DNA of 64,000 nt from Streptomyces sp. NBC_01591 (lineage in GTDB: Bacteria; Actinomycetota; Actinomycetes; Streptomycetales; Streptomycetaceae), in assembly GCF_035918155.1 (NCBI RefSeq), contig NZ_CP109327.1, positions 3,720,001 through 3,784,000 of the forward strand, in the 5' to 3' direction. The translations under genes were made by a program, and so were the position numbers. Shown here in pieces: positions 32,448 to 52,043 of this stretch. The notes beneath the pieces were generated by a model. That model did no database searches. It was not told where the DNA came from and saw only the letters and a program-made list of their open reading frames with translations. Every line of letters starts with the position of its first letter. Within the stretch, counting starts at the first letter, position 1.

Positions 32448-32520
32448 GCCTTCGTAGCTCAGGGGATAGAGCACCGCTCTCCTAAAGCGGGTGTCGCAGG
32501 TTCGAATCCTGCCGGGGGCA
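32448..32520 (+). tRNA. tRNA-Arg (anticodon CCT)
   Basis: A 73-nt cloverleaf. The acceptor GCCTTCG pairs with CGGGGGC including G-T pairs. The anticodon stem CCGCT/AGCGG encloses loop CTCCTAA with anticodon CCT, and the T-arm is GCAGGTTCGAATCCTGC. The gene ends in A with no encoded CCA. It reads AGG codons. Its 3' end is the attachment site of the island that follows. Confidence 0.96.
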
Positions 32521-32522
32521 CA
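32479..32522 (+). other. Attachment site copy 1 (attL, within tRNA-Arg)
   Basis: The 44 bp running from the anticodon loop to two bases past the tRNA end (CTCCTAAAGCGGGTGTCGCA onwards). It recurs exactly at 51995-52038, with one mismatch at 54005-54048 and with about three mismatches at 35882-35925. Confidence 0.93.
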
Positions 32523-32567
32523 ACGCGTTACCGCTCTGACCTGGGGTTTCTCCCCCAGGGAGGGGCT

Positions 32568-35881: not shown

Positions 35882-35925
35882 CTCATAGAGCGGGTTTCGC
35901 AGGTTCGAATCCTGCCGGGGGCACA
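35882..35925 (+). other. Attachment site copy 2 (E1/E2 junction)
   Basis: CTCATAGAGCGGGTTTCGCA and the rest of the tRNA 3' end, with about three differences from the tRNA copy, all in the first 17 bases. Because of these changes it could not form a normal anticodon stem; it is a recombination scar, not a tRNA gene. Confidence 0.9.
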
Positions 35926-35970
35926 AGGCGTTACCGCTCTGTACTGCGATTTCTCCCCCAGGGAGGGGTT

Positions 35971-37560
35971 TTAATCGGCCTCGAACTCCTCGTCCGGGGC
36001 CGTTTGCGTGAGCGGTGCATGAGCAGACAAGGAGTTGATCTCCCGCATTTTCCTCAATGGATCAGCACCATCCAGCACGGGTTCCGCGCTGGCAGCCTCC
36101 GCGATCGCCAGATCCGCCTCGGGGAGCAGGCTCGTGTACGTGTCCGACGTGATGGTGATCGAGGAGTGGCCGAGCATCTCCTGGATGTCCTTCAGGCCGG
36201 CACCGGCCGCGTGAGCCAGGGTCGCCGCGCCGTGGCGGAGGTCGTGGAGCCGGACCGGCGGGAGGCCGATCTCCTCGTACAGCTCGATGAATCGTCGTGT
36301 GACGTTGGCGGGGTGGAGAAGTTCTCCGTTCTCCCGGGTGAAGACCCTTCCGGTCTCCGCCCAAGCGCTCCCCCACTTCTCGCGGTCCTTGTCCTGGTGG
36401 GCGCGGTGCTGCTTGAGGGCCTGGACCGTGTCGGAGTCGAGAGCGAATGTGCGCGCACCTGCGTCTGTCTTGGGGTCGTCCTCGTACACCTCCCAGCCGT
36501 TCACCACCAGTTGCTTGGCGACGGTGAGGAGGCCGGCGCTCAGGTTGGTGTCGGTCCACCTCTGACCGCATGCCTCACCTCGCCGTAGCCCACGAAAGGC
36601 GACCAGGTGAAACAGCGCGTACAACCGGTCCTCGGCTACATGGTCGAGGAAGAGGCCGGTGTGTTCCGGCGTCCAGACCATCACCGGCGAGGGCTTCTCT
36701 CCGGTGCGCCTCCAGTGGAGGATGCGCTCCTCGGTCCACACGAGCGCCTTGGGACGCCTGCCGGCCTCCAACTCGACGTGGGAGGCGGGGTTGAAGGTGA
36801 TCAGCTGTTGAGCGATCGCGGCGTTCAACGCAGCCCGCAGTGTGGAGCGAACGCGTTGGCGCGTCGCCGGACCGACGATCCGGCGATAGGGATCCATCTC
36901 AGCGATGGCCGCTTTCATCGCCTTACGGCGGGCGCGCGGCTCGCGCCCCTTCCAGGGGATCTGTGCGAGATCCTCGACCGCTTTGCGCCGTGCGGCGTTT
37001 CCCTCGGCGATCTCGACGTTGGCCTCGGCTATGGCCTCGAACATCTCCGACAGATGGGTGACCCGAAGGCGGTCGAGTCGTAGGTGTCCGATGCGCGGCT
37101 GGAGATGGACACGAATGTTGCTCTCGTCGCGGCTGATCGCGCTCTGCCGCCCCTTCTTGCCCGCCAGCCAGATATCCAGCCAGTCGCCGACCGTGAGGCG
37201 GCTGGTGAGGTCCAAGCCGTGGCTCAGCCGCCGACGGGTCGACTCGATGTCCGGTAGCGGGGCCTTCTCGTCCCCCACCTTCTCCAGCAACTCGGCGATC
37301 TGATCCAGACCTTCGGAGTCGTCGGCGTCGGCAAGGCCGAGGAGCGCGCGTATGTGGTCGAGGTCGGCTTGTGCGGCTTTGAGACTCTCGTAGCCGGCAC
37401 GGCTGAACGAGCGGCGGGTTCCGTCGGCACGGAGCGGGAGTTCCTGGCGTACGGAGTAGGAGCCGTGCTTGCGGCCGGCGAGCCTGGGGCACTTCTTGCC
37501 GAGCGGTTTGCCGGTCCTAGGGTCGCGGCAGTAGCAGCGGCGGTGGGTGGAGCCCTTCAA
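35971..37560 (-). CDS. int: Tyrosine site-specific integrase
   Basis: A 529-aa phage/ICE-type integrase that recombines the element with the tRNA-Arg 3' end. An N-terminal cysteine patch (CYCRDPRTGKPLGKKC) is followed by an arm-binding region, a SAM-like core-binding domain near 122-260, and a catalytic domain with Arg326 (FRGLRRGE), His439 and Arg442 (LHDLRHGA), His465 (LGHSS) and Tyr475 (SDTYTSL). All are present, so it should be active. It lies 46 bp from the att core and reads toward it. Its ATG overlaps the TGA of the XRE gene (ATGA), so regulator and integrase are coupled. Confidence 0.96.
   Translation of the reverse strand: MKGSTHRRCYCRDPRTGKPLGKKCPRLAGRKHGSYSVRQELPLRADGTRRSFSRAGYESLKAAQADLDHIRALLGLADADDSEGLDQIAELLEKVGDEKAPLPDIESTRRRLSHGLDLTSRLTVGDWLDIWLAGKKGRQSAISRDESNIRVHLQPRIGHLRLDRLRVTHLSEMFEAIAEANVEIAEGNAARRKAVEDLAQIPWKGREPRARRKAMKAAIAEMDPYRRIVGPATRQRVRSTLRAALNAAIAQQLITFNPASHVELEAGRRPKALVWTEERILHWRRTGEKPSPVMVWTPEHTGLFLDHVAEDRLYALFHLVAFRGLRRGEACGQRWTDTNLSAGLLTVAKQLVVNGWEVYEDDPKTDAGARTFALDSDTVQALKQHRAHQDKDREKWGSAWAETGRVFTRENGELLHPANVTRRFIELYEEIGLPPVRLHDLRHGAATLAHAAGAGLKDIQEMLGHSSITITSDTYTSLLPEADLAIAEAASAEPVLDGADPLRKMREINSLSAHAPLTQTAPDEEFEAD
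36006..36027 (+). repeat. 22-nt putative integrase arm site, E2 left
   Basis: GCGTGAGCGGTG followed by CATGAGCAGA, inside the 3' end of the integrase gene. Confidence 0.65.
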
Positions 37561-38135: not shown

Positions 38136-38159
38136 CTCCTGGAGTTTTTCACCGTCCTC

Positions 38160-39146: not shown

Positions 39147-39280
39147 GCCTCCGCACGCCCAAGAGAATCCCGACGGACTCAGCCCCCACGCCCGCGCGCT
39201 CATCACCTACCTGACCGCGCGGGCACGACACCGTGATGCCACCGAGGCCCGCATGCGCAGCGCTGGCCCCGGTGGCATGC

Positions 39281-39733: not shown

Positions 39734-39763
39734 TCGGTTCTGTCTCCTTGCTTGTTGACGGTC

Positions 39764-40555
39764 TCAGTGCAGCAGCCAGCCGCCATCGACGTGGACTGAT
39801 TGCCCAGTGATGAACGATGCGGAGGGCCCGACGAGGAACGCCACGAGCGCCGCGACATCTTCGGGCCGCCCCCGGCGGGGAACACACTGGCGCTTGATCT
39901 GGTCCTCCGGGCTGGCGCGATGGCGGGCGGGGATCGCGGTCTCGGCCTCGACCTGGATGGCGCCGGGCAGGACCGTGTTGACGCAGACTCCGTACGGGCC
40001 CAGTTCGCGGGCGAGGGATCGGGTGAGGCCCAGGAGTCCGGCCTTCGCGGTGCTGTACGCGACGAGGTTGGTCCGGCCAGCGCGGGCGTTGACGCTGCCG
40101 ATGTTCACGATGCGACCCCAGCACCGTTCGACCATGCCGGGGGTCACCGCGTGGCAGGCGCGGTAGTGCGCGGTGAGGTTCACGTCGAGGGAGTAGTTCC
40201 AGGCGGCCTCGTCGGTGTCCTGCCACGGGACGCGTGGGTAGGCCCCGGCGTTGTTCACGAGGATGTCGATCGGGCCGGCCTCCGCACGGACCCGGTCGGT
40301 CATCGTCTGGACGGCGTCAGGGTCGGTCAGGTCGGCGTCGATGGCCACGCCAGGACTTCCGCCGCGGTCGAAGGTGGCGAGGAGTGCCCGTGCCTCCCTC
40401 TCCTGACCGAGGTGGTTGATGGCCACGGTGGCTCCTGACGTGGAGAGTGCGCGGCCGATCTCGGCACCAATGCCGGTGGCGCCGCCGGTGACGAGGGCAG
40501 TCCGGCCTTGCAGCGGCCGGGCTTGGAGATGGGTCTTAAGCAGGGGCAGGGACAT
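39764..40555 (-). CDS. Short-chain dehydrogenase/reductase
   Basis: A 263-aa classical SDR, cytosolic, NAD(P)-dependent. Visible are the cofactor motif [12 protein letters not shown] in [10 protein letters not shown], catalytic Ser in [13 protein letters not shown] (Tyr and Lys) and the PG motif VLPGAIQVE. It overlaps the 3' end of the phosphotransferase gene by 20 nt, so they are co-translated. It probably oxidises or reduces an alcohol/ketone in the small molecule handled by the operon. It resembles 3-oxoacyl-ACP reductase FabG, but no fatty-acid genes are near. Confidence 0.93.
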
Positions 40556-41654
40556 TGCGGCTCCGTTCGCCGGGGTCGGAATGAAGGACCGGTGCGGTGG
40601 AGAGGAAGACGTCGAGCTCAGTGCCGGGGTGCTGGCTCTCGGCGAGCTTGACCAGGACGAGCAGCAGGTCGTGGCCGGTCAGCCGGGCGGCGGGAATGAC
40701 GCCGAGGATGCGCAGGGCGAAGAAGGCACGGAGTTCATCCATACCGATGCCGCCATGGCCGCAGAGGCCGTGCAAGGCTCCCGCGATGGCGGCGTGGCGG
40801 CCGGGGCCTGTGTTCCAGGTGTAGTGGATGTCGATGTGCCCTGTGGTGGCGTCCAGTTCCAGGTGGTCGATGCGAGGGCGGGTGTGGGAGGGCAGGGCCA
40901 AGCGAAGGGTGCGTGCGTACACGTCGGGCTGGTAACGAGGGACGAGCCAGCCGCCCAGGGCCATCAGGTACCAGAGCAGGTTCGCGGCTTCGCCCGCGAT
41001 GGTGTTGCGACCGGCGAACTCGAAGTCGAGCCAGCACAGTGGGTCGGCGATGTTGGGCTCGGTGGGGTCGCCCTGCGTCAGCCCGGTTGGCCAGCGCCGG
41101 TCGGGGCTCAAGGTGTGGCGGACGCTGTCGATGGTTGCGGCGACGTTCAGCGTGAGCGGTCGGCCGTTGGCAGTGACCGTGTAGCCGGCCAGCTCCTGGG
41201 CGGTGAGGGTAACGTCGGAGTGGGGCAGGGTGATCGGCAGGTCCCGTCGCAGGTACCAGCGGTCGAGCCGGCCGCCGGGCCGGATCCGGTCGAGGTAAAG
41301 GTCCGGCACACACCTGGCGAGCGGAACCACCTTTCCGGTCTCGTCGGCCGGTGCCCGCAGGTTGTGGCAGACGCCGTCCACAAGGCGGGCCAGGCGGGGG
41401 AGCGCGGACGGATCGCGGTCAGCCAAGGCGATCACGTCGCCGAGCAGCAGCTCGCATCGTCCACTGGCGAAGACATCCTCGTACGCCAGCAGATGGCGGC
41501 CCGGCAACGCCGGACGCCCCCGCAGGGCCGGAACCCGGATCCGGGAGACAAGCTGCGACCAGCCCTGAACTTCGGCTTCGGCAGCCTCCCGGGTCGCGAC
41601 TTCCTTGTGGAAGGCGACCGCGGTCGAGGCCCTCAGCCGGCCACTCGCGCTCAC
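40536..41654 (-). CDS. APH-like phosphotransferase
   Basis: A 372-aa protein with an aminoglycoside-phosphotransferase/choline-kinase fold signature. The catalytic loop is QGDPTEPN at 194-201 (Asp196 as base; the usual His is Gln), and the metal site is WLDFEFAG at 208-215 (Asp210). An N-terminal lysine in [14 protein letters not shown] fits the ATP-binding strand. The GTG start overlaps the stop of the upstream fusion gene (GTGA). It likely phosphorylates a hydroxyl on a sugar or nucleoside-like compound rather than an antibiotic; this is inference from the operon. Confidence 0.85.
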
Positions 41655-43558
41655 CTCGCTTCTCCGGGAAGGGTGGCCAGCCAGCTGCGCAGGACGACCA
41701 ACGCCAGATCCTCTGCGGCAGACCGCTCGGTGCGGGCCGCCGCGACCATGCTCGTGTCCTGGCGGCCCGCCTCTACAAGTGCCTGCAGGGCGTCGCTGTC
41801 GGAGGGGCACTCGATCCCGCTGTACCGCAGCTGGATCTTCGCCAGGAGCGCGGTGACCTTGTAGAGGCCGCGGAGGTCAGGCGCACCCTTCAGGAGCTGG
41901 CGCCGGATCTCGACGGCAGCCTGGATCCCGTCACGCAGGCTCACGTCAACGTCGGTGGCCGCGTCCGGGGCAGGCAGAGCCAGCCCCGGAGCACACCACA
42001 GGGGGACGAGGCCGCCGCTGCCGATGAGCGCGAGGATGTGCAGGAGTCTGGAGGTGACGGCTCCGGCTCGGCACTCGGCACGGGTCAGCACGGTCAGTCC
42101 GAGCTTGACTCCGCCGAGTTCGGCTTCCAGGTCGGCCAGGACGCGGCGCATCCCTTCCAGGGACTCGGCGTCGGCAACGACGAACACGTCGAGGTCGCTC
42201 CAGCCGTGCTGGTACTTGCCCCGGGCGCCGCTGCCAGTGACGGCCAGGAGGTCGATCAGGGGCTGCGGTCCGGTCAGGCGATCGAGGAGTGTGGAGAGGT
42301 AGGACTCCAGGTGTACCGGCAGGCCCAGGGCGTTGACCGGCATGGTGCTCGGCTGGTGCTCGGGCCACTGGCGGGTCAGGACCAGGTGGTCCAGTCGGCG
42401 TTCCAGCGCCAAGCGGGGCCCGTCGTTACTGATGACCTCCTGGGCGATGGAGGCGATCTTGTCGGCACCCCTGGCGCTCTTGACGCGGTCACGGTCGGCG
42501 ACGTCCTGGGCGCCTGCAGTCCCGCGCTGTGCGCGAACTGGTGCGGAGGTGTCCAGGTAGGTGATGGTGAGCTGAGGGCCAAGCATCCTGGCGAGCTCGG
42601 CCGCCGAGTCGAAATCGTGCAGCGACTCGATGCTGACGCAGTCGACGAAGTGGTGAGCCTGGCAGTACCGATCGAGGCCGTCCACGATCAGTTCGGCCTG
42701 GACGACCGGGGCCACCCGGTACGGGTCCGCGATGCCCGCACGGTCGGCGGCGTCCTCGATCAGATAGCCAATCTTGAGGCGGGCGTGCCCATGGTGGGTT
42801 CTCAAGTACTCGCTGGCGGTGCTCTTGCCGCTCTCCGACATCCCGCCGAGTGCGATGACGTGCACACCTGCCATTGCCCTGACGGGAATGGCGGGGTGCA
42901 GTGGCGCCAGGAGACGGCGGACCTCGTCCTGGATGGTTACGGTCGATCGGTCGCCGATGCCGATCACCATGGCGAAGCGGCCGTCCGCGACGAGCCGGTT
43001 GATCTGAGCGTGGAGGTGGCGCTGGTAGGCCGCGTAGATGTCCGTGACAGTGGCCTCGTGGGACAGGCTCCGGCGGGTACCTTCCTCGGCGTCCTCACAG
43101 TGCAGGAGCAGGAGGGCGCGTTCGTCTCGTTCGGCTGCCCGGAGAGCAGACTCGTACGGCGCCAGGAGGGAGCGAGCACGGTCGGCGGCCCGCCAGGCAT
43201 CCAGGTTCTCCCGTACGGCGACGGTGGCCGCGACGGACGCCTCCAGCATCGGGATCCCGCGGTCCAGAAACCGCACGGGCGCGGAGTACGGATGCCGGGA
43301 GCGCTCCAGGTAGGAATGGGCGAGAACATCGGCGACCTCCTCGGCCGGCCCCGTCTCGAACCACCAGCGGCCCATGCCGTCGGTCTTGATGGCCGCCCAG
43401 CGCCGGTCGTAGTGGTCAAGGGGGCCTGCCGAGGTGGCGGCAGAGCCCATACGACGGGCGAGAATTCCGATCTGTTTGGTCTTGCCGGTGTTGTCGGGAC
43501 CGCTGAACGCGACCGACACGGGGAGGGGCTGCGTATCGCTGCTGAGCTGGCTGATCAT
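41651..43558 (-). CDS. Kinase-kinase-nucleotidyltransferase fusion protein
   Basis: A 635-aa three-part protein. Residues 15-210 form a thymidylate-kinase-like P-loop domain (Walker A GPDNTGKT at 20-27; FLDRGIPMLEAS in a TMPK-like position). Residues 232-400 form a second P-loop kinase, dephospho-CoA/uridine-kinase-like (GGMSESGKST at 238-247). Residues 415-560 form a pol-beta-type nucleotidyltransferase (GSGARG at 442-447, Asp455 and Asp457 in SDLDVF). The helical C-terminus resembles KNTase/HEPN-like partners. It is the core gene of the operon. A multistep salvage or activation enzyme for a nucleotide-like compound is a reasonable guess; the substrate is unknown. Confidence 0.85.
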   Translation of the reverse strand: MISQLSSDTQPLPVSVAFSGPDNTGKTKQIGILARRMGSAATSAGPLDHYDRRWAAIKTDGMGRWWFETGPAEEVADVLAHSYLERSRHPYSAPVRFLDRGIPMLEASVAATVAVRENLDAWRAADRARSLLAPYESALRAAERDERALLLLHCEDAEEGTRRSLSHEATVTDIYAAYQRHLHAQINRLVADGRFAMVIGIGDRSTVTIQDEVRRLLAPLHPAIPVRAMAGVHVIALGGMSESGKSTASEYLRTHHGHARLKIGYLIEDAADRAGIADPYRVAPVVQAELIVDGLDRYCQAHHFVDCVSIESLHDFDSAAELARMLGPQLTITYLDTSAPVRAQRGTAGAQDVADRDRVKSARGADKIASIAQEVISNDGPRLALERRLDHLVLTRQWPEHQPSTMPVNALGLPVHLESYLSTLLDRLTGPQPLIDLLAVTGSGARGKYQHGWSDLDVFVVADAESLEGMRRVLADLEAELGGVKLGLTVLTRAECRAGAVTSRLLHILALIGSGGLVPLWCAPGLALPAPDAATDVDVSLRDGIQAAVEIRRQLLKGAPDLRGLYKVTALLAKIQLRYSGIECPSDSDALQALVEAGRQDTSMVAAARTERSAAEDLALVVLRSWLATLPGEAR

Positions 43559-43616
43559 CGGCTTCCCTTCGCAGGGTGGTGCAGAGCAGGTCGGGCATGG
43601 CGGGACCGCGGTTGTC

Positions 43617-43802
43617 CTATCCGGCGGCGTCGTCCGGGCCTGGGTCGTCGACGTTGAGCGAGGGATGCGCCAGGAAGTCCTGATCAGCCAAGTACTCGCC
43701 CTGAACGAGCGCGCCGATCACGGCGAGTCCTGCAGCTGTGCCGAGCGCCCACACCCAGGTCAGGGCAGTTCCGAGCGGATCGGATAACGCGGGCCGGATC
43801 AC
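43617..43802 (-). CDS. Small single-TM protein
   Basis: A 61-aa protein with one hydrophobic helix (ALTWVWALGTAAGLAVIGALV, about 13-33) and an acidic tail ending DDPGPDDAAG. The GTG start overlaps the upstream gene's TGA (GTGA), which supports a real, coupled gene. Family not recognised. Confidence 0.7.
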   Translation of the reverse strand: MIRPALSDPLGTALTWVWALGTAAGLAVIGALVQGEYLADQDFLAHPSLNVDDPGPDDAAG

Positions 43803-44128
43803 GTGGCCGCTGCTTCCTGGGCCTTCGCGCGCAGGGCGACGGCCCGCTCCAGCTGGGCGCTCAGCAGGAGGACTCTGCCCGGGTCCATTTCGAGGGTCGT
43901 GGTGGTCTTCGTACCGTCGAGGAAGCAGACCTCGATCGGCAGGGCCGCGTGCCCGGTCCGTCGGTCGTAGCGGGGGTCCTTGTCCAGGAGTGCGAGGCCG
44001 CAGACGATCGGGGTCGTCTGCCGGGAGTCACGTCCGGCCACCTTGTGGGGTGCCGGATGCTGCGTTGTCTCGTCCGCCGTCGAGGGCGGGGTCGTGCGGC
44101 TGCGGGGGTCGTGGTCGGTCGTCGTCAC
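43799..44128 (-). CDS. Hypothetical protein, first gene of the E2 metabolic operon
   Basis: A 109-aa protein. About 45 polar residues are followed by a compact domain (TTPIVCGLALLDKDP, IEVCFLDGTKTTTTLEMDPGRVLLLSAQLERAVALRAKA) ending in a helix. GTG at 44128 has GAGAGG at 7 nt; a GTG 15 bp earlier lacks one. A 24-bp perfect palindrome lies 33 bp upstream. The C-terminal part resembles small Streptomyces proteins found next to XRE regulators, but I know no function. Confidence 0.72.
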   Translation of the reverse strand: MTTTDHDPRSRTTPPSTADETTQHPAPHKVAGRDSRQTTPIVCGLALLDKDPRYDRRTGHAALPIEVCFLDGTKTTTTLEMDPGRVLLLSAQLERAVALRAKAQEAAAT

Positions 44129-44160
44129 CGGTGTTCCTCTCACGCGTCCGGGCAGGCACC

Positions 44161-44184
44161 AACAGGCCCTGATCAGGGCCTGTT
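44161..44184. promoter_or_regulatory. Perfect 24-bp palindrome in the divergent promoter region
   Basis: AACAGGCCCTGA and its exact complement TCAGGGCCTGTT with no spacer. It lies 33 bp from the start of the minus-strand operon and 119 bp from the XRE-TPR regulator. It is a strong operator candidate. Confidence 0.7.
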
Positions 44185-44302
44185 CGAGCCAATCGGAGAT
44201 CCAAGGGGTGATGTTCAGTCAACGACGATCCGCGGTCCCGGGGCAGGGCCCAGGATGTAGTCCTGCGTAATCCCGCGTAATCCAGGTGGGGAGGGTGACG
44301 GG

Positions 44303-45622
44303 GTGCCGAAGAACCCGGCTGTCGCGGAGCTGATCAAGCAGGCGTGCCAAGAACGGGGCTGGGGGCCGTCGGAGTTGGCACGCGCGCTCGGTCTGGCGGA
44401 GAGCGGCGACCCGCGGCGTCTGCAGCGCCAGCACGCCCGGCGCTGGATCGAGGGGGAGCGAACCCCCGACCATTGGTGGCCCTACATCGCCCAGGTGTTG
44501 GGACTAGACCCGGAAGCGATCAACCTTCCAGAGATCGCGCCGGCGGCACTCCACGCCGATACCGTGGCATCAGTCCTCCAGCTGGGAAGGAACGACGTGG
44601 ACCGCCGGAACTTCATCCTCGCCTCCAGCGGATACGCCCTGTCTGCCCTCGGCCTGCCCGACATGGACAGCATCACCCGCCGGACCACAACCGTCTCCCC
44701 AGGGGCCGTTCGCGTCGGCAGGGGCGAGGTGGCAGCCGTGCGCCACATGGTGAAGGCCCTCGGCGACTCGGCGTCCGAACTCGGCGGCGGCCACGCGCGC
44801 CATCTGGCCGTCCGCTACCTGACCCAGGACGTTGCTCCCTGGCTGGAGGGCCGCTTCACCGAAGCCACCGGGCGCGAGCTGTTCGCCGCGACCTCCCAGC
44901 TGGTCCACCTCGCCGGCTGGATGGCCCAGGACGAAGGCGACACCCTCGAACTGCGCGGGCTCGCTCAGGGCTACTACGCCCACTCCTTCCGCCTGGCCGC
45001 CGAGGCCGGCGACGCGGAGCTGTCCGCCACCGCCCTGCGGGGGCTCGCTGTCCAGTGCGTCGACCTGGGCTACCGAGCCGAGGCCGTCCAGCTCGGCGAA
45101 GCCTGCGTGGAGTACGGCCGCCACCTGGACAACCCGCGAGCCGTCGCCTACTACGAAGCCACCCTCGCCAACGCCGCCGCCCAGGACGACGACCGCCACA
45201 TGGCGACCAAGCACCTCGCCATGTCCGAGACCGCCATCGGCAGACCTGCCACCGCAGGCAGCGATTCCTGGGCGGCCCATTACTCCCCCGGCCGCTGGGC
45301 CCACGAATCCGGCATGATCCTCTCCCGCCTCGGCGACCTCGACGCCGCCGAAGAACACCTCCACCTCGCCCTCGACATCCACGGCCTCGACCGCCGCCGC
45401 ACCCGCGCCATCGTCCTCGCCGACCTCGGCGGCGTACGCCTGCGCCAAGGAGACGTCGACGGCGCCATGGCCACCTGGCGCGAATTCCTCGACTGCGCCG
45501 ACGGCATCCGCTCGATCAAGGTCCAGGCCGCACTGCGGGACATGCGCGTACGCCTGCGCCGGTACAGCGGAGTTCCTGAGGCGCAGGAACTCCGTGAACG
45601 AGCAGCTCGCGTCACTGCCTGA
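44303..45622 (+). CDS. XRE-family regulator with TPR domain
   Basis: A 439-aa regulator of a kind common in Streptomyces. An HTH occupies residues 5-65 (VAELIKQACQERGWGPSELARALG, with an insert and RRWIEGERTPDHWWPYIAQVLG). A linker with a hydrophobic patch follows (ILASSGYALSALGLP). Then come tetratricopeptide-like repeats to about 430, with helix pairs such as LAQGYYAHSFRLAAEAGDAE and LGDLDAAEEHLHLALDIHG. TPR-type regulators bind small peptides or other ligands. It is divergent from the fusion/APH/SDR/Nudix operon and probably controls it. The GTG start is close to the promoter. Confidence 0.9.
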   Translation: MPKNPAVAELIKQACQERGWGPSELARALGLAESGDPRRLQRQHARRWIEGERTPDHWWPYIAQVLGLDPEAINLPEIAPAALHADTVASVLQLGRNDVDRRNFILASSGYALSALGLPDMDSITRRTTTVSPGAVRVGRGEVAAVRHMVKALGDSASELGGGHARHLAVRYLTQDVAPWLEGRFTEATGRELFAATSQLVHLAGWMAQDEGDTLELRGLAQGYYAHSFRLAAEAGDAELSATALRGLAVQCVDLGYRAEAVQLGEACVEYGRHLDNPRAVAYYEATLANAAAQDDDRHMATKHLAMSETAIGRPATAGSDSWAAHYSPGRWAHESGMILSRLGDLDAAEEHLHLALDIHGLDRRRTRAIVLADLGGVRLRQGDVDGAMATWREFLDCADGIRSIKVQAALRDMRVRLRRYSGVPEAQELRERAARVTA

Positions 45623-45706
45623 TTAGCGAGGGCCAACGAAGCACTCGTCAGCGGCTCAACGACGGGGCGTCAGACCTCGTGTGCCCGGCCTTCAAGCGCT
45701 GGGGGT

Positions 45707-46063
45707 CTACGCCTTCGTGAAGGCATCCTCGACCTGACCGATCCGGTCAGTCCACCAGTGCAGTAGCGCTTCGTCAGCGGTGAACAGCTCATCGCAGGAG
45801 AAGTCACCGCGGTCGCAGTGGAACTTCAGCTGCCAGAAGTCCGTCATCCGCTTCCGCCACAGCCGGCGTACGCCATCCGCCAGCGTCGACGCGTCCAGCG
45901 AGACCACGGAACGGTAGCCGCGCATGAACTCCGACACCCGAGCGAGGTCGAACACCCTGTCTATGCCGTGGACCAACCTGCCCCGGCTACTCGTTGGGCC
46001 GCCCGAATGCCACCGAGCGAGGAAAGGGAAGCCCGTTGAAGAAGCGACTGCCACCCGTCGCAC
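45707..46063 (-). CDS. Hypothetical protein
   Basis: A 118-aa frame on the minus strand; the part from Met at 45925 (MRGYRSVVS, LRRLWRKR-like basic stretch, then WQLKFHCDRGDFSCDELF) looks more protein-like than the first 45 residues. It may be a 72-aa gene or a remnant. No family recognised and no ribosome site that settles the start. It is convergent with the XRE-TPR gene. Confidence 0.4.
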   Translation of the reverse strand: MRRVAVASSTGFPFLARWHSGGPTSSRGRLVHGIDRVFDLARVSEFMRGYRSVVSLDASTLADGVRRLWRKRMTDFWQLKFHCDRGDFSCDELFTADEALLHWWTDRIGQVEDAFTKA

Positions 46064-46120
46064 TGCGCTATGCCATTCACTCGGCCTTGCCCGAGTGGCG
46101 CCACCTGCTCAGCAGGAGCA

Positions 46121-46612
46121 TTAGATTGGAGGCTCCGTCATAATCTTTTGGGCCTGCGTAATGAAGTCCGATTGCGCGTCCAGGAAAGATTCGAAGGCAA
46201 GATCAATCTGCCGCTGCTCTTCCGACCTATGCAGGAAGAGGTGGACCATCCGATAGATATCGCTTAATAGAGACGTTGTTGCCCTAGCAACCTCCTCAGG
46301 GCCACAAAGTCGAATTCTGGTCAGCCGAGACTCGCCTCGCAACGGAATCGGCTCTACCTGAGATCTCAGCAGCTCGAATTCCTCAGGCGAAAGTGACGAT
46401 GCGGGCTCAGAGGGCAGGTGTTCCAGGGGTTCCAGCAGCTCCATAAACGACAGATATGCATCTCGTCGCTCGGCCCTGAGCTGGCGCGCATGCTCAATCC
46501 GCCCGTGGTCCCGAGCCTGCCGCCGAGTGCCCACATAGGTCAGCCAGGAAGCTCCCAGCGTCCCGACAACTGCGATGCCCGCCCCGCACAAGGCCGCTAC
46601 TGCTTGGTCCAT
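46121..46612 (-). CDS. Membrane-anchored hypothetical protein
   Basis: A 163-aa protein with one N-terminal transmembrane helix (AVAALCGAGIAVVGTLGASWLTYVG, about 4-28). A basic stop-transfer and a long helical cytoplasmic part follow (RIEHARQLRAERRDAYLSFMELLEPLEHL). The pattern is common in small actinobacterial proteins of unknown role. The ATG at 46612 follows AGGATGGG. Base composition is less GC-rich than the core genome. Confidence 0.75.
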   Translation of the reverse strand: MDQAVAALCGAGIAVVGTLGASWLTYVGTRRQARDHGRIEHARQLRAERRDAYLSFMELLEPLEHLPSEPASSLSPEEFELLRSQVEPIPLRGESRLTRIRLCGPEEVARATTSLLSDIYRMVHLFLHRSEEQRQIDLAFESFLDAQSDFITQAQKIMTEPPI

Positions 46613-47096
46613 ACGACCCATCCTGGACCACTCGCTGCTCCGAGACATGCAAACCAGGCTCACAGCAGACGGTGACCGCTGATCCCACTCCCCGATACGG
46701 CGCTCCACGCCCGCCCCCCAACCCGGCGGAAGACTTGCACACATGAGCGCGCTATCGCATGACGCGACGAGCCGCACGCCACACCTACGGTTGACCTGGC
46801 CGCCGGGAACAAAAGATCCACGCCTTCTCCAGGTGCGGTGGTGCGAGGACACGGGACAGGGCCAGCCACCGTGCTGTTCGAACGCCAGTTGCTGACTACC
46901 TATGGACTTCCAGTCCAATCAAGGCTTTCCAACCGCCGCCCAAGAGCTCGCAGCGAGCCCCGTGTCGTCGGCAAGCCCGAGCCCTCCCCTTCCTGACACC
47001 AACCTGACAACTGCATCCAAATGAGGCAACAGGCGCTGCAATCCAGACACTTCCACCTTTCGAAGCCTTAATCCTGGCGCGATTTGAGCCTATCTA
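46613..47096. other. Gene-poor region before the four-gene operon
   Basis: Nearly 500 bp, relatively AT-rich toward its right end, with only short unconvincing open frames on both strands. I see no RNA gene or repeat. Confidence 0.6.
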
Positions 47097-47120
47097 CACA
47101 GTAATCATTCGCATACTGTG
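47097..47120. promoter_or_regulatory. Inverted repeat upstream of the four-gene operon
   Basis: CACAGTA, ten bases, then TACTGTG, in AT-rich DNA 82 bp before the first start codon. It is a candidate operator or promoter element. Confidence 0.5.
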
Positions 47121-47201
47121 AGTCACGTTTTTGGCTTGGCCCGGCGCTGCACGATCCCGTGCTGCGTCAGCATGTGTTGAAGAAGGGGGAGGGGACACAC
47201 C

Positions 47202-47723
47202 ATGGATCCGTTGGCGTTTCCGGTACTTGCCGGAGCAGTGCTTACCGAGGCCGTCAAGTTCCTGTTCGATCGGGCGAGTGCCGTACTCGACAGGCGCGCC
47301 GGCCGTGTCCCAGTCGAAGAGCCGGAGCGCGTGGCGGGACTGCCAGACACGCTCCAGGTGCGAGCCGCTGAACTAACGGACGCACGTATGGAGCGCATCA
47401 GTCAGGCTCAAGGTGCAGTCCGGGTCTACCTCTCGCGCCCGGATCTTCTCCAGGGTGATGACGAGGGGCTTCGCGAGCTCCTCGGCCAGTTGCGGCGGGA
47501 CCTTGAAGAAGCCTACGGCCGCGGCCTCCCGTTCGGAGATGAGCAGCGCCCCCGCCTAGGTGCGGAAGTCTCCCAGCACGCCGACGAAATCTCAGGTCAG
47601 CAGGTGGGCATCCGTGCGCAGGGCCTGACAGATAAGGGCCGTGCCCGGGTGGTGCAAACCGCCAAGACCATTACGGAGTCGGGCGAACAGGTCGGGCTGC
47701 AATTCGACGGACCGATCGGCTGA
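47202..47723 (+). CDS. Hypothetical protein, gene 1 of the unknown E2 operon
   Basis: A 173-aa protein. The N-terminus is weakly hydrophobic and helical (FPVLAGAVLTEAVKFLFDRASAVLD), with an Arg/Glu-rich middle and a charged C-terminus (GRARVVQTAKTITESGEQ). The first segment could be an amphipathic membrane-associated helix. The ATG is preceded by GGGGAGGGG. The stop is 14 bp before gene 2. I do not recognise the family; the helical N-terminus followed by VPVEEPERV recalls small adaptor proteins in actinobacterial gene pairs with NTPases (weak inference). Confidence 0.78.
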   Translation: MDPLAFPVLAGAVLTEAVKFLFDRASAVLDRRAGRVPVEEPERVAGLPDTLQVRAAELTDARMERISQAQGAVRVYLSRPDLLQGDDEGLRELLGQLRRDLEEAYGRGLPFGDEQRPRLGAEVSQHADEISGQQVGIRAQGLTDKGRARVVQTAKTITESGEQVGLQFDGPIG

Positions 47724-47737
47724 GGTCCACAACACAC

Positions 47738-50635
47738 ATGAGCTTCGAAAATGACAACACTCAGCCGGACACACGAAGGTCCGATGCGCACGGACGCTTC
47801 GATGGCCAGCCGCCTCCACCCGTTGCAACCGGTGAGTGGCCCACTCCGCGACCAAGCGACCCGACGAAAAGTTCCGTGGAGTTTCGGGAGGATTCCGAGG
47901 CAGAATCATTGGCTGATGCAAACGGTGACATGCTCTCAGGCGACGAACCCACTGAACGGGCACCTGACGCGCCCCCACGCCCGCCTGACTCGATCCCATC
48001 GGCCAACGACAGGGCAGCCTTACTCCTGGGCACTCTACCGCACGACAACCAACATGGGGATGCCGCTTCGGCGCCTGGCGACTCCACAAAAGAGGCGGGG
48101 GCACCACTGGCCCCGGCCTTACCAAATGCGGAGCGGGAGGGCGCCGACACCGAAGAGTTGCAACCACAACCTGCCTACGAGGATCGCGTTCATCCACGCG
48201 ATGAGCACCTAGCAGCAACGACAGACTGGGGCCCTGGATACACGCGCTCAGCAGGCACCGCTCGATCACAGAGCGTCCCATCGACCATCGAGTCTGCGAT
48301 CCATGCTTCACCGAGCGATTCGTCCGACCTGCATGCCCCTGCCCGGCGTGACACGCCTCCCGCATCCGCCAGGCCGCTGGCCACCACCACGGATGCCGCC
48401 TCCCAGCGGCAGACGCCAGCCCCAGCTGCAGTAGAAGCTTTCCACCAGGCAGCGCTCTTGCAGCGGGCCTTGATCAACAATGGCGAGATGATCGCCGTGA
48501 AGAATGTCTTCGAGCAGACGCTCGATACTCACGCGTCGATTTCGGCCGGATACCTTGACGTCATCCGTGAGGTATATGCCGAGCTGCACGCAAACGATCA
48601 CGTCACAGGAACCGAACGAAGCACCTTCAACGACGGCTACTCGCTGCTCGAACTACCAGGGTCCGTGCTGGTCCTCAATCGGCCACCTAACACCAGCCGC
48701 AACATCACTGCCTACGCCCTCATGGCCCGTCTTATTGAGAACGGGCTCATCAAGGAAGTCTGGCCGCTCTCGTTCGGAAGCGCTTCAATCTTCCCTGCCA
48801 AGCGCCTCCCTCGCGAACAACACCGTGGTTACGTACTCGAACTGCCGGCCGACGAGGACGGTTTTGAGGTCCACGACTCGTTCGGAGCGAACCTTAAGGA
48901 CGTCCAGGAACACCTCGGCCCGCGCCACTCTCGACTCGTTGTCATCACTACGCCCGACCAGTGGCGCCGCATCGGACGCGGCGCTCCACATGGAGTAACT
49001 CCTGACCTAGGCCAGGCACGGCCTGCCGACATTGCGGAGCGATGGCTGCGCGCAGAGGAGCCCTCTTTCCCGATTGCTCTTTGGCTCAGGCGCCTAAAGA
49101 TGAAAGCTCTCCTGGAGGGGCAAAGCCCGACCGAGGTTCTGCGCATCGTGGGTCTCATGCGAGAGGCTCGGCGGTCCGCCTTGCGGACCATTGCCAACGC
49201 CTCAGCCGGCCTCGATGAATTGCAGCGTCGCCGGGCCGAAGCCGCGGCCGACGCAGACGAGGCGATCGACAAGCAAGTGGCCGAGGTCGCAGCCGCTCGG
49301 AACAACTGGGAGGACGACCTCCATACATGGCACGAAAGGCCAGAGCGAACCAGTTTCCAGCGTAACTTTCTGGTTACCGCTGCCGTGCTACGCGGAGCTC
49401 CTGTCGGCCACATCTATGCCAAGGCCGCTGACCTCAGCAAGCTACTTGAAGGCCACGATGTCGAGGTCACGGGCCAGCAGGCACCCGGCGTCATCGCCAT
49501 GACCAGGGCCATCCGCGCAGACCGCACACGAGAAGGCGTACTTACCTTCCAGCGTCCGAACTGGGACGACGCCGCTCTGGAGTACTTCTGGACCGACCGT
49601 CCGCTCGCCCGGGTTCCCTTCCTGCAGTGGCTAGCACAGGCACCCCTGGACGAGCCGAAGGTGGCCATGGAAAGCGTCGGTCTGGACGATCGACGGGCTC
49701 TAGCCGAGAGAGTCGGTGATTTTGCTGTCCGCTGGGCGGTCCGCCACCGCCGCCAAGAACCCCTGGAGGAGTTGGTCAAGGCATGGCATAAGCATTCCAA
49801 AAAAGGGCTGTGGCCCCTTGCCACAGCCCTCCTAGACGACGCAGCCGTTCACCCCGCTAGCGCTCCATACATCAACACAATGCTGCTGTCTTGGGCTAGC
49901 CGCAAAACAGACGTTGCTCTGCCGTTGGCAGTCGTGTCTGTCTGTGCCGGCAAGTTCGGGCGAATCCACACCGGAAAGGCGCTGCGGCGCCTGCGGCACG
50001 CCGCGGAGTCGGAGCATCCTGAGGTTGCAGATGCACTCCGAGAGGCCGTGCGCACTCTCTGGGCAGACGTTTCCGTGCGGCCGCTCCTCTTCAAAGACAT
50101 CGTCGACTGGTGCGGGAACGCCAAGGTAAGAGAAACCGTCGGCCGCCAGACGTTCGCCGCACTAGCGACAACCGCCGGAAGCGAGAACCTCGACATTCCG
50201 CTGATCCTCGACAATTCTAGCGATGGAGATGAGGAGGAATTTCGCCCGTCGCCAGAAGGGTTGATTCAAGGGTGGCGGGCCCTACTGAGAGAAGGCCCCG
50301 GGCCCACCGGCACAAGGGAAGTGGATAGGGCGGTCTTCCTTTGGCTGGATGCCGCCTTGCGGCACCGCCCTCTGAGACATCTCATCCTTCACTCTCTTCG
50401 AAAGGCCGTTGACGTACGAGGCACCGAGGAGGGGCGGGTTCTGCGCGAGACACTACGCGCTTGTGCGCACGGCTGGGTGCAAGGCGAAGACCGCCCCTTC
50501 TCGGAGGAAAGGGAGTCACTGCGGCAGGATCTGGGCGCCCTCCTCGACGAGGATCTGTATGCCGCCGTGCAAGAGCAGGAGGGGGGCGGCCCCATTGATG
50601 AGGGCGCCACCATCAAGAGGGCCGACACCAAGTGA
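47738..50635 (+). CDS. Large protein with degenerate P-loop-like domain, gene 2 of the unknown E2 operon
   Basis: A 965-aa protein of no known family to me. Residues 1-235 are disordered, rich in Pro, Asp, Ser and Thr. Around 305-400 an alpha/beta pattern resembles a STAND/AAA core: SVLVLNRPPNTSRNITAYALM stands where GxxGxGKT would be expected, but the Lys/Thr are missing, and RLVVITTPDQW resembles a later strand. Residues 460-540 are a charged helical region, and 560-950 are helical repeats (ALAERVGDFAVRWAVRHRR, LPLAVVSVCAGKFGRI). TTA codons at 48020 and 48119 make it bldA-dependent or recently acquired. Its stop overlaps gene 3 (GTGA). Confidence 0.8.
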   Translation: MSFENDNTQPDTRRSDAHGRFDGQPPPPVATGEWPTPRPSDPTKSSVEFREDSEAESLADANGDMLSGDEPTERAPDAPPRPPDSIPSANDRAALLLGTLPHDNQHGDAASAPGDSTKEAGAPLAPALPNAEREGADTEELQPQPAYEDRVHPRDEHLAATTDWGPGYTRSAGTARSQSVPSTIESAIHASPSDSSDLHAPARRDTPPASARPLATTTDAASQRQTPAPAAVEAFHQAALLQRALINNGEMIAVKNVFEQTLDTHASISAGYLDVIREVYAELHANDHVTGTERSTFNDGYSLLELPGSVLVLNRPPNTSRNITAYALMARLIENGLIKEVWPLSFGSASIFPAKRLPREQHRGYVLELPADEDGFEVHDSFGANLKDVQEHLGPRHSRLVVITTPDQWRRIGRGAPHGVTPDLGQARPADIAERWLRAEEPSFPIALWLRRLKMKALLEGQSPTEVLRIVGLMREARRSALRTIANASAGLDELQRRRAEAAADADEAIDKQVAEVAAARNNWEDDLHTWHERPERTSFQRNFLVTAAVLRGAPVGHIYAKAADLSKLLEGHDVEVTGQQAPGVIAMTRAIRADRTREGVLTFQRPNWDDAALEYFWTDRPLARVPFLQWLAQAPLDEPKVAMESVGLDDRRALAERVGDFAVRWAVRHRRQEPLEELVKAWHKHSKKGLWPLATALLDDAAVHPASAPYINTMLLSWASRKTDVALPLAVVSVCAGKFGRIHTGKALRRLRHAAESEHPEVADALREAVRTLWADVSVRPLLFKDIVDWCGNAKVRETVGRQTFAALATTAGSENLDIPLILDNSSDGDEEEFRPSPEGLIQGWRALLREGPGPTGTREVDRAVFLWLDAALRHRPLRHLILHSLRKAVDVRGTEEGRVLRETLRACAHGWVQGEDRPFSEERESLRQDLGALLDEDLYAAVQEQEGGGPIDEGATIKRADTK

Positions 50636-51528
50636 GGCGATTCATTCCCTGGCCGCGACGAAACACGGCGACAGAACCACCGCCCCCGCCCCCGCCCCCT
50701 GCGCGGGCCTACACCTTCACTGACCGGCTGACCAGCAGCAATCCAACGCTGCGCTTCATCGCGCAGCTACAGCTGACATGGCGGGCGGAGTCAATAGGTA
50801 CTACTGGCAGCCAGCACGATGCAGCACGCCTCATCCGGGACATCGTGGAAAAGGAAGCATCATCATGCGACGTATTGCGACGTGACGCCGCCGAACAGGA
50901 CATCAATGCCGCCTTGCGGGATCTGCTGCCGCTGACGGGGCATGGGGTCGAGGTGCTGAACAGCCATGTTCGCCTCACTACCGATGAATCAACACAAAAG
51001 GCAGCTCTCTTAGCGGAGCGCATGTGCCAGGGCTACGCCCTCGAAGAAGCTCGCCGACGCCAGGACCAAGAGCGGGAAGAAGCCCGTCTACGCCTGCAGC
51101 GCGAGAGGGAAGAAGCCCAACGGTGCGAGGAACATGCTCGTGCCGAGGACCAGCTTCGCCGCGAGTGCGAGCTAGACGCCTTGGCCCGCAGGCAGGCCCG
51201 AGCACGCGCGGACTTTCTCCGCAGCGAGATCCTCAGCGACCCAGCCTCCGCCCGCCTATACACGCTCATGGAGCAGCACACAGAGCACTGGCCTCGCCTG
51301 GGTGGGCCTCCTGTCGGCACGAGCCTGCCGGACTTGGTACGCGAAGTTCAGCAATGGCAGCCGCAAGCGCAATGGGTCGTCGTGGCCCAATTACTCAACG
51401 ACTTCGTGGTCGGCCTCACGGAGGAGGGTCGCAAGGAATTCCTGACTATTTTAGCAAAGGCTGTCAAGGTACATGGCGATGAAAAAACCGCCAAAGCGCT
51501 CACCCAAGCCGCAGGGGAGCGCAAGTGA
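50632..51528 (+). CDS. Coiled-coil protein, gene 3 of the unknown E2 operon
   Basis: A 298-aa protein. A Pro run at 16-24 precedes a helical domain with SSNPTLRFIAQLQLTWRAES and AARLIRDIVEKEAS. About 135-200 is a strongly charged coiled coil (ARRRQDQEREEARLRLQRER and on), and a C-terminal domain follows with WVVVAQLLNDFVVGLTEEG. The GTG start overlaps gene 2's TGA, and its own TGA overlaps gene 4. Three TTA codons (51010, 51391, 51451). The coiled coil suggests oligomerisation, perhaps with gene 2. Confidence 0.8.
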   Translation: MRRFIPWPRRNTATEPPPPPPPPARAYTFTDRLTSSNPTLRFIAQLQLTWRAESIGTTGSQHDAARLIRDIVEKEASSCDVLRRDAAEQDINAALRDLLPLTGHGVEVLNSHVRLTTDESTQKAALLAERMCQGYALEEARRRQDQEREEARLRLQREREEAQRCEEHARAEDQLRRECELDALARRQARARADFLRSEILSDPASARLYTLMEQHTEHWPRLGGPPVGTSLPDLVREVQQWQPQAQWVVVAQLLNDFVVGLTEEGRKEFLTILAKAVKVHGDEKTAKALTQAAGERK

Positions 51529-51743
51529 AACCAGCCCTGTGGCGTTGGGCCTTGGACCCAACCACAAGCCTTCTAGCTCTACACCTCCGGGCCCAAGCCC
51601 GCGGTCGTATGTCGTATGACGCCGCCTGGCGATTGGCTCGCGTCACCCGCTACCCCGACGAACTGGTCTACCGCCTCCACGGCCACGGCCGGGAAACCAC
51701 GCGCCAGAGCGGACCCGACCTGCCATCTCGGGAGTCGAGATGA
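51525..51743 (+). CDS. Small hypothetical protein, gene 4 of the unknown E2 operon
   Basis: A 72-aa basic protein (WRWALDPTTSLLALHLRAQA, RMSYDAAWRLARVTRYPDE) starting with GTG in the overlap GTGA with gene 3. The coupling is the best evidence that it is real. Part of the sequence reads like a small DNA-binding or adaptor helix pair, but no family is recognised. Confidence 0.6.
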   Translation: MKPALWRWALDPTTSLLALHLRAQARGRMSYDAAWRLARVTRYPDELVYRLHGHGRETTRQSGPDLPSRESR

Positions 51744-51857
51744 CCGTCAATGTTTTGCCCCGCATGGGCCCACGGGGTACTTGGTCGTGGGCGCCCCGTG
51801 CCTGTGAGGGACAGACACGGTCGACTGGTTGCAGTACGCCCCGGTTGAGAGCTCGAC

Positions 51858-51879
51858 GCGTGCGCGATGTGTGAGCGGA
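51858..51879 (+). repeat. 22-nt putative integrase arm site, E2 right
   Basis: GCGTGCGCGATG followed by TGTGAGCGGA, 116 bp before the att core; the matching E1 copy lies 118 bp before its core. Confidence 0.65.
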
Positions 51880-51994
51880 CCGGCCGGCACAGGTCGCCAT
51901 CAGGGGGATGCAGTACGCAAGGGCCACCGTGCTGACCAGGGAAAACAGCAGAGCACGGCAGCGTCGAGCACTACCCGGCAAGGACTCGATCCCA

Positions 51995-52038
51995 CTCCTA
52001 AAGCGGGTGTCGCAGGTTCGAATCCTGCCGGGGGCACA
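51995..52038 (+). other. Attachment site copy 3 (E2/E3 junction)
   Basis: Exact 44-bp duplicate of the tRNA-Arg 3' end (32479-32522). It lacks the 5' half of the tRNA, so it is an att site only. Confidence 0.93.
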
Positions 52039-52043
52039 GCGCT

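What the first reader, a model, noticed from the sequence alone, without database searches (positions are those of the whole stretch)
47202..51743. Four-gene, translationally coupled operon of unrecognised proteins at the island's cargo end
Genes of 173, 965, 298 and 72 aa are separated by 14 bp, GTGA and GTGA overlaps. The 965-aa protein pairs a 235-residue disordered N-terminus with what looks like a P-loop domain lacking the Walker A Lys/Thr, then long helical repeats. The 298-aa protein is a coiled-coil protein and the small proteins have adaptor-like helices. There are at least five TTA codons. An element-borne multigene system with a STAND/AAA-like core and an oligomerising partner, next to an att site, is what new anti-phage systems look like, although no nuclease or other effector domain was identified.
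Basis: partly seen in the sequence, partly recalled or inferred. Interest (0 to 1): 0.85.

Follow-up and report, generated by a model that had tools for sequence, protein, structure and literature searches.

The report
Streptomyces NLR-like module with stomatin-type scaffold
A mobile Streptomyces DNA element carries a four-gene module that looks like a bacterial relative of immune receptor systems: a small candidate killer protein that may attack membranes, a switch-like receptor that seems to share a docking motif with it, and a scaffold protein predicted to be of the ring-forming stomatin type.

Summary
Four genes (A 173, B 965, C 298, D 72 aa) lie in one operon near the attR end of a tRNA-Arg-integrated element, with the spacing, overlaps, degenerate P-loop and five TTA codons described. 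The operon keeps its order but is patchy: 25 of 392 genomes of the genus (a lower bound). B and C form a core that recurs in three operon classes with different upstream partners: A (this one); a TIR protein; or a cyclase-like or small helical protein. In the other two classes the upstream protein's C-terminus and B's N-terminus share a class-specific motif (26 of 28 pairs significant); in one clade the partner changed while the motif stayed. In the window's class the match is weaker and shows only with profiles. A predicted structure of C is an SPFH/band-7 fold plus an 82-residue helix, closest to HflK/C, vault, prohibitin and stomatin. Best reading: an NLR-like, motif-templated suicide or defence module with an SPFH scaffold. 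Its anti-phage role is untested and B's structure prediction did not return. New variant of a known kind (amyloid-signalling NLR pairs), with an added SPFH component that eight literature searches did not surface.

The parts
47202..47723 (+). gene A (173 aa), candidate membrane-targeting effector
   Evidence: ORF; beside B in 29 loci, window included, one fetched twice; no Pfam/NCBIfam hit above cut-off, no PADLOC hit
47211..47267 (+). A residues 4-22, N-terminal hydrophobic segment (KD19 1.75)
   Evidence: the most hydrophobic 19-mer of A is this segment in 27 of 27 class-1 rows, values 1.12-1.87, above 1.6 in 5 of 27
47559..47615 (+). A tail motif copy 1 (residues 120-138)
   Evidence: best hhalign site A vs B head, E 0.11, not significant alone; leave-one-out PSSM
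47640..47702 (+). A tail motif copy 2 (residues 147-167)
   Evidence: seen in the alignment; local alignment to B head (window p 0.47, not significant alone)
47738..50635 (+). gene B (965 aa), NLR/STAND-like receptor with degenerate P-loop
47738..48442 (+). B residues 1-235, low-complexity extension, likely disordered
   Evidence: composition; variable in relatives
48446..48511 (+). B head motif, residues 237-258
48659..48739 (+). degenerate Walker A region (residues 308-334)
   Evidence: Lys in 2 of 55 rows, mostly Arg otherwise
50632..51528 (+). gene C (298 aa), predicted SPFH-fold scaffold with coiled coil
50689..50985 (+). C residues 20-118, predicted SPFH domain
   Evidence: model; Foldseek
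50986..51231 (+). C residues 119-200, single 82-residue helix
   Evidence: model
51525..51743 (+). gene D (72 aa), small arginine-rich protein of unknown role
   Evidence: D-like ORF in 20 of 27 class-1, 8 of 12 class-3, 0 of 16 class-2 rows
51995..52042 (.). attR copy of the tRNA-Arg 3' end (98% identical)
   Evidence: ARAGORN reads a tRNA-Phe at 51972-52035
35882..35929 (.). inner att copy (92%), probable left end of the element proper
32479..32526 (.). outer att copy at the 3' end of tRNA-Arg(CCT) 32448-32521
35971..37560 (-). tyrosine integrase
   Evidence: PF00589 E 1.3e-16

Best explanation
The operon is a mobile, NLR-like signalling module. B is the sensor/switch: a P-loop receptor whose nucleotide site is degenerate and whose C-terminal half probably senses the trigger (inferred). 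On activation B clusters and its N-terminal head motif templates the related motif in A's C-terminal tail; this resembles bacterial amyloid signalling motifs (motif sharing is shown at profile level, templating is inferred). Clustered A then uses its N-terminal hydrophobic segment on the membrane to kill or arrest the cell (inferred by analogy with Bell/HeLo effectors). C is an SPFH-fold, coiled-coil protein expected to form a ring or cage that organises B and A (fold predicted, ring inferred). D is an accessory protein. The likely purpose is defence by suicide against phages or rival elements in a filamentous bacterium (inferred). My confidence by step: A-B coupling motif about 0.7, C SPFH fold about 0.85, membrane effector about 0.5, anti-phage or anti-element role about 0.5.
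For: B-C is the constant core of three operon classes: B vs the TIR-class B hhalign prob 100, E 1.1e-39 over 583 columns; C vs the TIR-class partner prob 92, E 5.5e-7. Upstream partners differ by class: A; TIR (PF13676 in the two scanned; DWxx[RK]E[IL] in 16 of 16); a CRP-type regulator (cNMP_binding + HTH_Crp in the two scanned) with a cyclase-like protein, or a small helical protein. Upstream tail vs B head: p<0.05 in 15 of 16 class-2 and 11 of 12 class-3 pairs, and class-specific (mean local score 48.5/57.2/40.2/33.5 for classes 2/3a/3b/3c on the diagonal, 22.1-28.6 off it); TIR tail vs B head hhalign E 1e-7. In clade 3a the small-protein tails and the cyclase-like tails carry the same motif (12 of 12 comparisons), so the partner changed and the motif stayed. 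Window class: a leave-one-out B-head profile matches A tails at p<0.05 in 10 of 20 loci at <70% identity, 6 of 10 at <45%, 3 of 6 at <35%, against 0 of 16 class-2 and 0 of 12 class-3 non-cognate tails. B tree: each of the five class/motif groups is one side of a branch. C model: the 12 PDB chains at E<=0.001 are all from SPFH-family or vault entries. tRNA gene within about 1.5 kb in 5 of 25 class-1 loci, no pair of loci sharing flank DNA on both sides (no background rate measured).
Against: For the window's own A-B pair single-sequence local alignment is not significant (p 0.47); only 4 of 27 class-1 pairs reach p<0.05, and the class-1 mean (26.0) lies within its non-cognate scores (22.1-27.5). 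Whole-profile hhalign A vs B gives E 0.11. At <35% identity the window's own profile p is 0.114. A control stretch, A's first 65 residues, also gave a weak signal (Fisher p 0.025). The A tails are homologous to one another, so combined p values overstate the evidence. A's hydrophobic segment exceeds the usual transmembrane threshold (1.6, recalled) in only 5 of 27 rows. A shows no detectable homology to the class-3 small helical proteins (hhalign E 0.33). B has no Pfam hit above cut-off and its profile matches a NACHT alignment only insignificantly, at Walker A. C has no Band_7 sequence support; its model rests on four close sequences (mean pLDDT 72, pTM 0.41), and whole-chain TM-scores of the top matches are low (0.23-0.29). 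No trigger, toxicity or phage data exist.
Confidence: 0.5

Rival explanations
1. A membrane-microdomain or protein quality-control complex: C scaffolds a ring as HflK/C or QmcA do, and B and A are regulatory or client-handling partners with no cell-death role.
For: C's closest folds include HflK/C, stomatin, QmcA, prohibitin; B's P-loop is degenerate; no protease or nuclease family was matched in the four proteins.
Against: Patchy, mobile, seldom syntenic distribution; sister operons with TIR proteins and exchanged upstream partners sharing class-specific motifs.
Confidence: 0.2
2. An element-maintenance or transfer-regulation module (entry exclusion, addiction) that serves the integrative element rather than defending against phage.
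For: It lies about 250 bp from attR on an integrase-bearing element; flanks of relatives include integrase, GntR/UTRA, DUF2637 and HTH_17 genes, two members each.
Against: For most relatives no tyrosine integrase was listed nearby (capped list), and many flank genes are ordinary chromosomal ones; the module's make-up resembles immune signalling.
Confidence: 0.2
3. The tail/head motif in the window's class is only compositional similarity between Gly/Gln-rich linkers, and A and B interact by other means.
For: Single-pair alignment not significant for the window (p 0.47); hhalign E 0.11; weak signal also in A's first 65 residues (Fisher p 0.025).
Against: The profile finds nothing in 28 non-cognate tails, in A's middle (Fisher p 0.92) or in C's tail (0.74), against p about 1e-11 for A's tail; the other classes show the same arrangement strongly.
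Confidence: 0.25

Closest known systems
Bacterial amyloid-signalling NLR pairs (BASS motifs with Bell effectors; Dyrka et al. 2020, not read itself; seen through passages of PMC7889193, PMC12261475, PMC8086366)
   Same: Adjacent or overlapping genes, effector C-terminal motif shared with the receptor N-terminus, effectors mainly small helical with a hydrophobic helix and less often TIR or CHAT, filamentous bacteria.
   Different: B has no Pfam NB-ARC/NACHT hit and a degenerate P-loop; a conserved SPFH-fold partner C and small protein D are added; membership in BASS1-10 could not be tested.
RNA vault with TEP1 (TIR-like NADase + NACHT) and MVP (PMC13174449: outline with abstract, and passages)
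   Different: Separate genes, a different TIR family (PF13676), no WD40 or vault RNA looked for; prohibitin, HflK/C and stomatin match C about as well.
iSTAND / MoxR-vWA ternary conflict systems of multicellular bacteria (PMC7159879 passages)
   Same: Inactive STAND proteins, cNMP-cyclase and band-7 domains recur in such systems.
   Different: No MoxR-vWA pair among the operon's proteins or the ten window neighbours scanned.
Thoeris/TIR systems
   Same: Class-2 TIR proteins have weak hits to ThsB (L028, E 1.1e-5) and ThcB4 (L033, E 0.0076).
   Different: The window operon has no TIR hit.

Membership tests
Amyloid-signalling NLR pair (BASS/Bell) | Receptor and effector encoded by adjacent genes | tested here: met
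   A-B adjacent, 14 bp apart in the window; A beside B in 29 loci
Amyloid-signalling NLR pair (BASS/Bell) | Motif shared by effector C-terminus and receptor N-terminus | tested here: inconclusive
   Profile level: 10 of 20 class-1 loci p<0.05, non-cognate controls 0 of 28; single pairs 4 of 27, window p 0.47. In classes 2 and 3: 26 of 28
Amyloid-signalling NLR pair (BASS/Bell) | Motif belongs to BASS1-10 | not testable with these tools
   BASS profiles are not held
Amyloid-signalling NLR pair (BASS/Bell) | Motif forms self-templating amyloid | not testable with these tools
   needs peptides
Amyloid-signalling NLR pair (BASS/Bell) | Effector is a helical bundle with a hydrophobic helix (Bell) | tested here: inconclusive
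   N-terminal hydrophobic segment in 27 of 27 rows, over 1.6 in 5; no homology to class-3 small helical proteins; no Bell model held, no structure of A predicted
NLR / STAND NTPase | NACHT or NB-ARC domain detectable by sequence | tested here: not met
   no Pfam hit above cut-off for B; class-2 homologue L028 has only a sub-threshold nSTAND3 hit, E 9.2e-4
NLR / STAND NTPase | Intact Walker A lysine | tested here: not met
   Arg in the window (RPPNTSRNIT); Lys in 2 of 55 rows
NLR / STAND NTPase | STAND fold with C-terminal repeats | not tested
SPFH/band-7 superfamily (C) | SPFH fold followed by coiled coil | tested here: met
SPFH/band-7 superfamily (C) | Band_7 sequence signature (PF01145) | tested here: not met
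   no Band_7 hit; hhalign vs 16 Band_7 sequences no support
SPFH/band-7 superfamily (C) | N-terminal membrane anchor | tested here: not met
   0 of 38 class-1/3 C proteins in the first ~70 residues; 14 of 16 class-2 homologues have one, 2 could not be anchored
iSTAND MoxR-vWA ternary system | MoxR and vWA genes alongside | tested here: not met
   none among the four proteins or ten neighbouring window proteins scanned with Pfam
Anti-phage defence system | Protection against phage | not testable with these tools
   needs an experiment
Anti-phage defence system | Match to a known defence protein model | tested here: not met
   PADLOC: no hit for A, B, D; C only E 0.016

The most novel reading that the evidence does not exclude
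B-C is the core of an undescribed family of SPFH-scaffolded, NLR-like immune assemblies in Streptomyces. A ring or cage of SPFH protein C concentrates a nucleotide-dead receptor B, and interchangeable effectors (membrane-attacking A, TIR NADase, cyclase-like enzyme) plug in through swappable amyloid-like motifs. The TIR-receptor-SPFH version would be a bacterial counterpart of the eukaryotic vault, whose shell (MVP, SPFH-type shoulder) houses TEP1 (TIR-like + NACHT).
Probability: 0.25. Interest if true: 0.9.

Novelty: new variant of a known kind. Interest (0 to 1): 0.74.

Why it matters
If right, this adds a third, scaffold component to bacterial amyloid-signalling immune pairs and links SPFH rings (stomatin, prohibitin, vault) to NLR-type immunity, which would give the unexplained vault a tractable bacterial comparison. 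It also shows effector exchange through matching short motifs inside one receptor family, and makes motif-specific signalling testable in a genetically tractable host.

Tried and rejected
Band_7 by sequence: hhalign of C alignments against 16 Band_7 sequences gave nothing; the SPFH call rests on the structure model alone. Class III cyclase: the class-3 upstream protein has VDMKGYS/GDG-like stretches (recalled as cyclase-like), but Pfam, NCBIfam, a PDB profile search and hhalign against 16 Guanylate_cyc sequences gave no support, so 'cyclase-like' is only a lead. A vs TIR, A vs class-2 C, A vs class-3 small proteins: no profile match. PDB profile searches with C and A: for C the best hit was a designed helical protein on the coiled coil (E 0.0011), the rest at E 0.14 or worse; for A one hit at E 0.14. 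Viral contigs: none with the B or TIR-class B profiles; phages: no match; plasmids: one distant match in a Streptomyces plasmid. Phylum survey with a broad B profile: 6 of 396 genomes at E<=1e-10, the window's own included (only the top 3 candidates per genome were scored, so a lower bound). Single-pair alignment for the motif in class 1 failed before the profile test. A defence-gene control for the flanks was listed (class-2 list) but not run. Eight literature searches surfaced no paper joining SPFH, an NLR-like receptor and amyloid-type signalling in Streptomyces; the library lacks most subscription papers.

Rows dropped before counts: L017 (B broken by a frame break) and L075 (A cut at the contig end) from the pair, motif, tree and D counts. 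L065 is the same locus as L019 but stayed among the 27 class-1 rows (it was left out of the 25 in the tRNA count). L107, L108 and L112-L116 were not added to the classes. In some searches B heads of some class-2/3 loci (for example L086, L087, L089, L092, L094, L100) were read from the first in-frame start, so residues before the true start may raise some scores. Walker A letters were counted by eye from the list.

Full report
OBSERVATION. The four ORFs are at the stated coordinates with the stated lengths, a 14-bp gap and two 4-base overlaps. No Pfam or NCBIfam family is matched above cut-off, and PADLOC gives nothing but E 0.016 for C. The five TTA codons, lower GC and the missing Walker A Lys are confirmed.

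ELEMENT. A 48-bp sequence from the 3' end of tRNA-Arg(CCT) occurs at 32479-32526, 35882-35929 (92%) and 51995-52042 (98%). A tyrosine integrase (PF00589) lies at 35971-37560. The element proper is therefore probably 35882-52042, beside a 3.4-kb stretch with a second att copy and an apparent integrase remnant (a 102-nt block 99% identical to part of the integrase gene); that this stretch comes from an earlier insertion is inferred. The operon ends about 250 bp before attR.

DISTRIBUTION. The B profile finds a match at E<=1e-20 in 49 of 392 genomes of the window's genus (two candidates scored per genome, so a lower bound). The genus is Streptomyces, inferred because one member's locus (L065) is the S. 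californicus locus L019. By score and by A next to B, 25 of the 392 belong to the window's class; in all 29 loci hold A and B, counting the window, L017-L019 (L018 is Embleya), one locus fetched twice and one genome of another family in the order. Across 396 genomes of the phylum 6 match at E<=1e-10. Ten pairs of class-1 loci share some flanking DNA, none on both sides; five of 25 have a tRNA gene within about 1.5 kb (L023 and L068 are near-copies; no background rate was measured); three loci hold a match to the window's integrase. Of 114 proteins flanking 19 class-1 loci, at least one matches a CBASS cyclase and at least one a type I or IIG methyltransferase model with strong E-values; two each match integrase and IS transposase models, and most of the Pfam families shown have a single member, many of them ordinary chromosomal genes (only the top 25 families of each are shown, and no control was run). 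So mobility is supported and a defence-island link is only suggestive.

A COMMON CORE IN THREE CLASSES. B is homologous to a protein in TIR operons (hhalign E 1.1e-39, 583 columns) and C to that operon's membrane-anchored protein (E 5.5e-7). Class 2 (16 loci) is TIR - B - C with an N-terminal hydrophobic anchor (14 of 16, 2 could not be anchored), with an HTH gene upstream in two of the three loci scanned. Class 3 (12 loci) is a cyclase-like or a small helical protein followed by B - C, with a CRP-type cNMP-binding protein further upstream in the two loci scanned and by appearance in others, and a D-like ORF in 8 of 12. In the B tree each of five class/motif groups is one side of a branch. In the C tree class 2 is one side of a branch, class 1 only weakly so (49/74), and class 3 needs two changes.

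COUPLING MOTIF. Upstream C-termini and B N-termini share a motif that changes with class. In class 2 it is of the form GPVHTGxGxQY, in 3a AxxxGxARVVQVGGD, in 3b and 3c others. The 3a core V-Q-V-G resembles the RHIM core (core motif recalled; a RHIM-BASS3 link is in passages of PMC7889193 and PMC12261475). Pairs are significant against shuffles in 15 of 16 (class 2) and 11 of 12 (class 3). In 3a, proteins of two different kinds carry the same tail (12 of 12 comparisons). The window genome holds a class-3-like paralogue about 69 kb upstream of the operon (L111) with a matching pair (p 0.046). In the window's class the match is weaker: pairwise 4 of 27, window p 0.47. A leave-one-out B-head profile has its best site in A within the tail in 14 of 20 loci, with p<0.05 in 10 of 20, 6 of 10 and 3 of 6 as redundancy is cut to 70%, 45% and 35% identity, and in 0 of 28 non-cognate tails. 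Controls within the locus: A middle Fisher p 0.92, C tail 0.74, A first 65 residues 0.025. Because A tails are related to each other, the combined p values (1e-5 to 1e-12) overstate the evidence.

B. The P-loop is degenerate across the family: Lys in only 2 of 55 rows, mostly Arg otherwise; the Walker B strand keeps one acid. This fits an inactive or altered nucleotide switch (inference). Sequence links to NACHT or nSTAND3 are sub-threshold, and the structure job for B had not returned.

A AND D. A has a conserved hydrophobic N-terminal segment (27 of 27 rows, over 1.6 in 5) and a tail with two motif copies. This is the anatomy described for Bell effectors (PMC7889193 passages), but homology could not be shown and no structure of A was predicted. 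D is found in 20 of 27 class-1 rows, in some upstream of A, and its role is unknown.

MECHANISM AND RIVALS. Best reading: B senses, clusters and templates A through the head/tail motif; A attacks the membrane; C scaffolds. Shown: operon, conservation, motif sharing (strong in sister classes, moderate here), SPFH fold of C by prediction. Inferred: sensing, templating, membrane killing, ring formation, defence. Rivals are an SPFH microdomain or quality-control complex, an element-maintenance module, and a spurious motif in this class.

NOVELTY. Amyloid-signalling NLR pairs, including ones with TIR effectors, are in print (PMC7889193 passages). Eight literature searches did not surface a B-C/SPFH core; most subscription papers are not held. 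I rate it a new variant of a known kind.

Noticed in passing
L084-L087, L089, L091, L099; L112-L114, L116: A cyclase-like protein beside a B-family receptor, often with a CRP-like cNMP-binding regulator upstream, also in the window's own genome (L112); the cyclase assignment is unproven.
   Followed up: partly
L026-L034, L093-L095, L098, L100-L102: TIR - P-loop receptor - membrane-anchored SPFH-like operon in 16 loci, TIR carrying a DWxx[RK]E[IL] stretch in 16 of 16.
   Followed up: partly
L111 (G000:C1:3696061-3697911): A second B-C operon with a small helical partner about 69 kb upstream of the window operon in the same genome.
   Followed up: partly
window:32479-35929: Composite element: extra att copy and apparent integrase remnant (102-nt block 99% identical to part of the intact integrase gene) beside the tRNA-Arg, with a 635-aa ORF without Pfam match at 33573-35480.
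   Followed up: no
window:39281-43558: Run of minus-strand element genes: 635-aa protein with weak AAA_18 and nucleotidyltransferase hits, a 372-aa protein without Pfam match, an SDR enzyme and a NUDIX protein.
   Followed up: no
L017:9305-12180 and L083:8716-10933: B reading frame is broken in these two relatives (decay or sequencing error).
   Followed up: no
G107:C1:141677-143710 and 11981100-11983133: Two copies of B with equal scores near opposite chromosome ends, as in a terminal inverted repeat.
   Followed up: no
window:51972-52035: ARAGORN calls a tRNA-Phe here; it is most likely the attR fragment of tRNA-Arg.
   Followed up: yes
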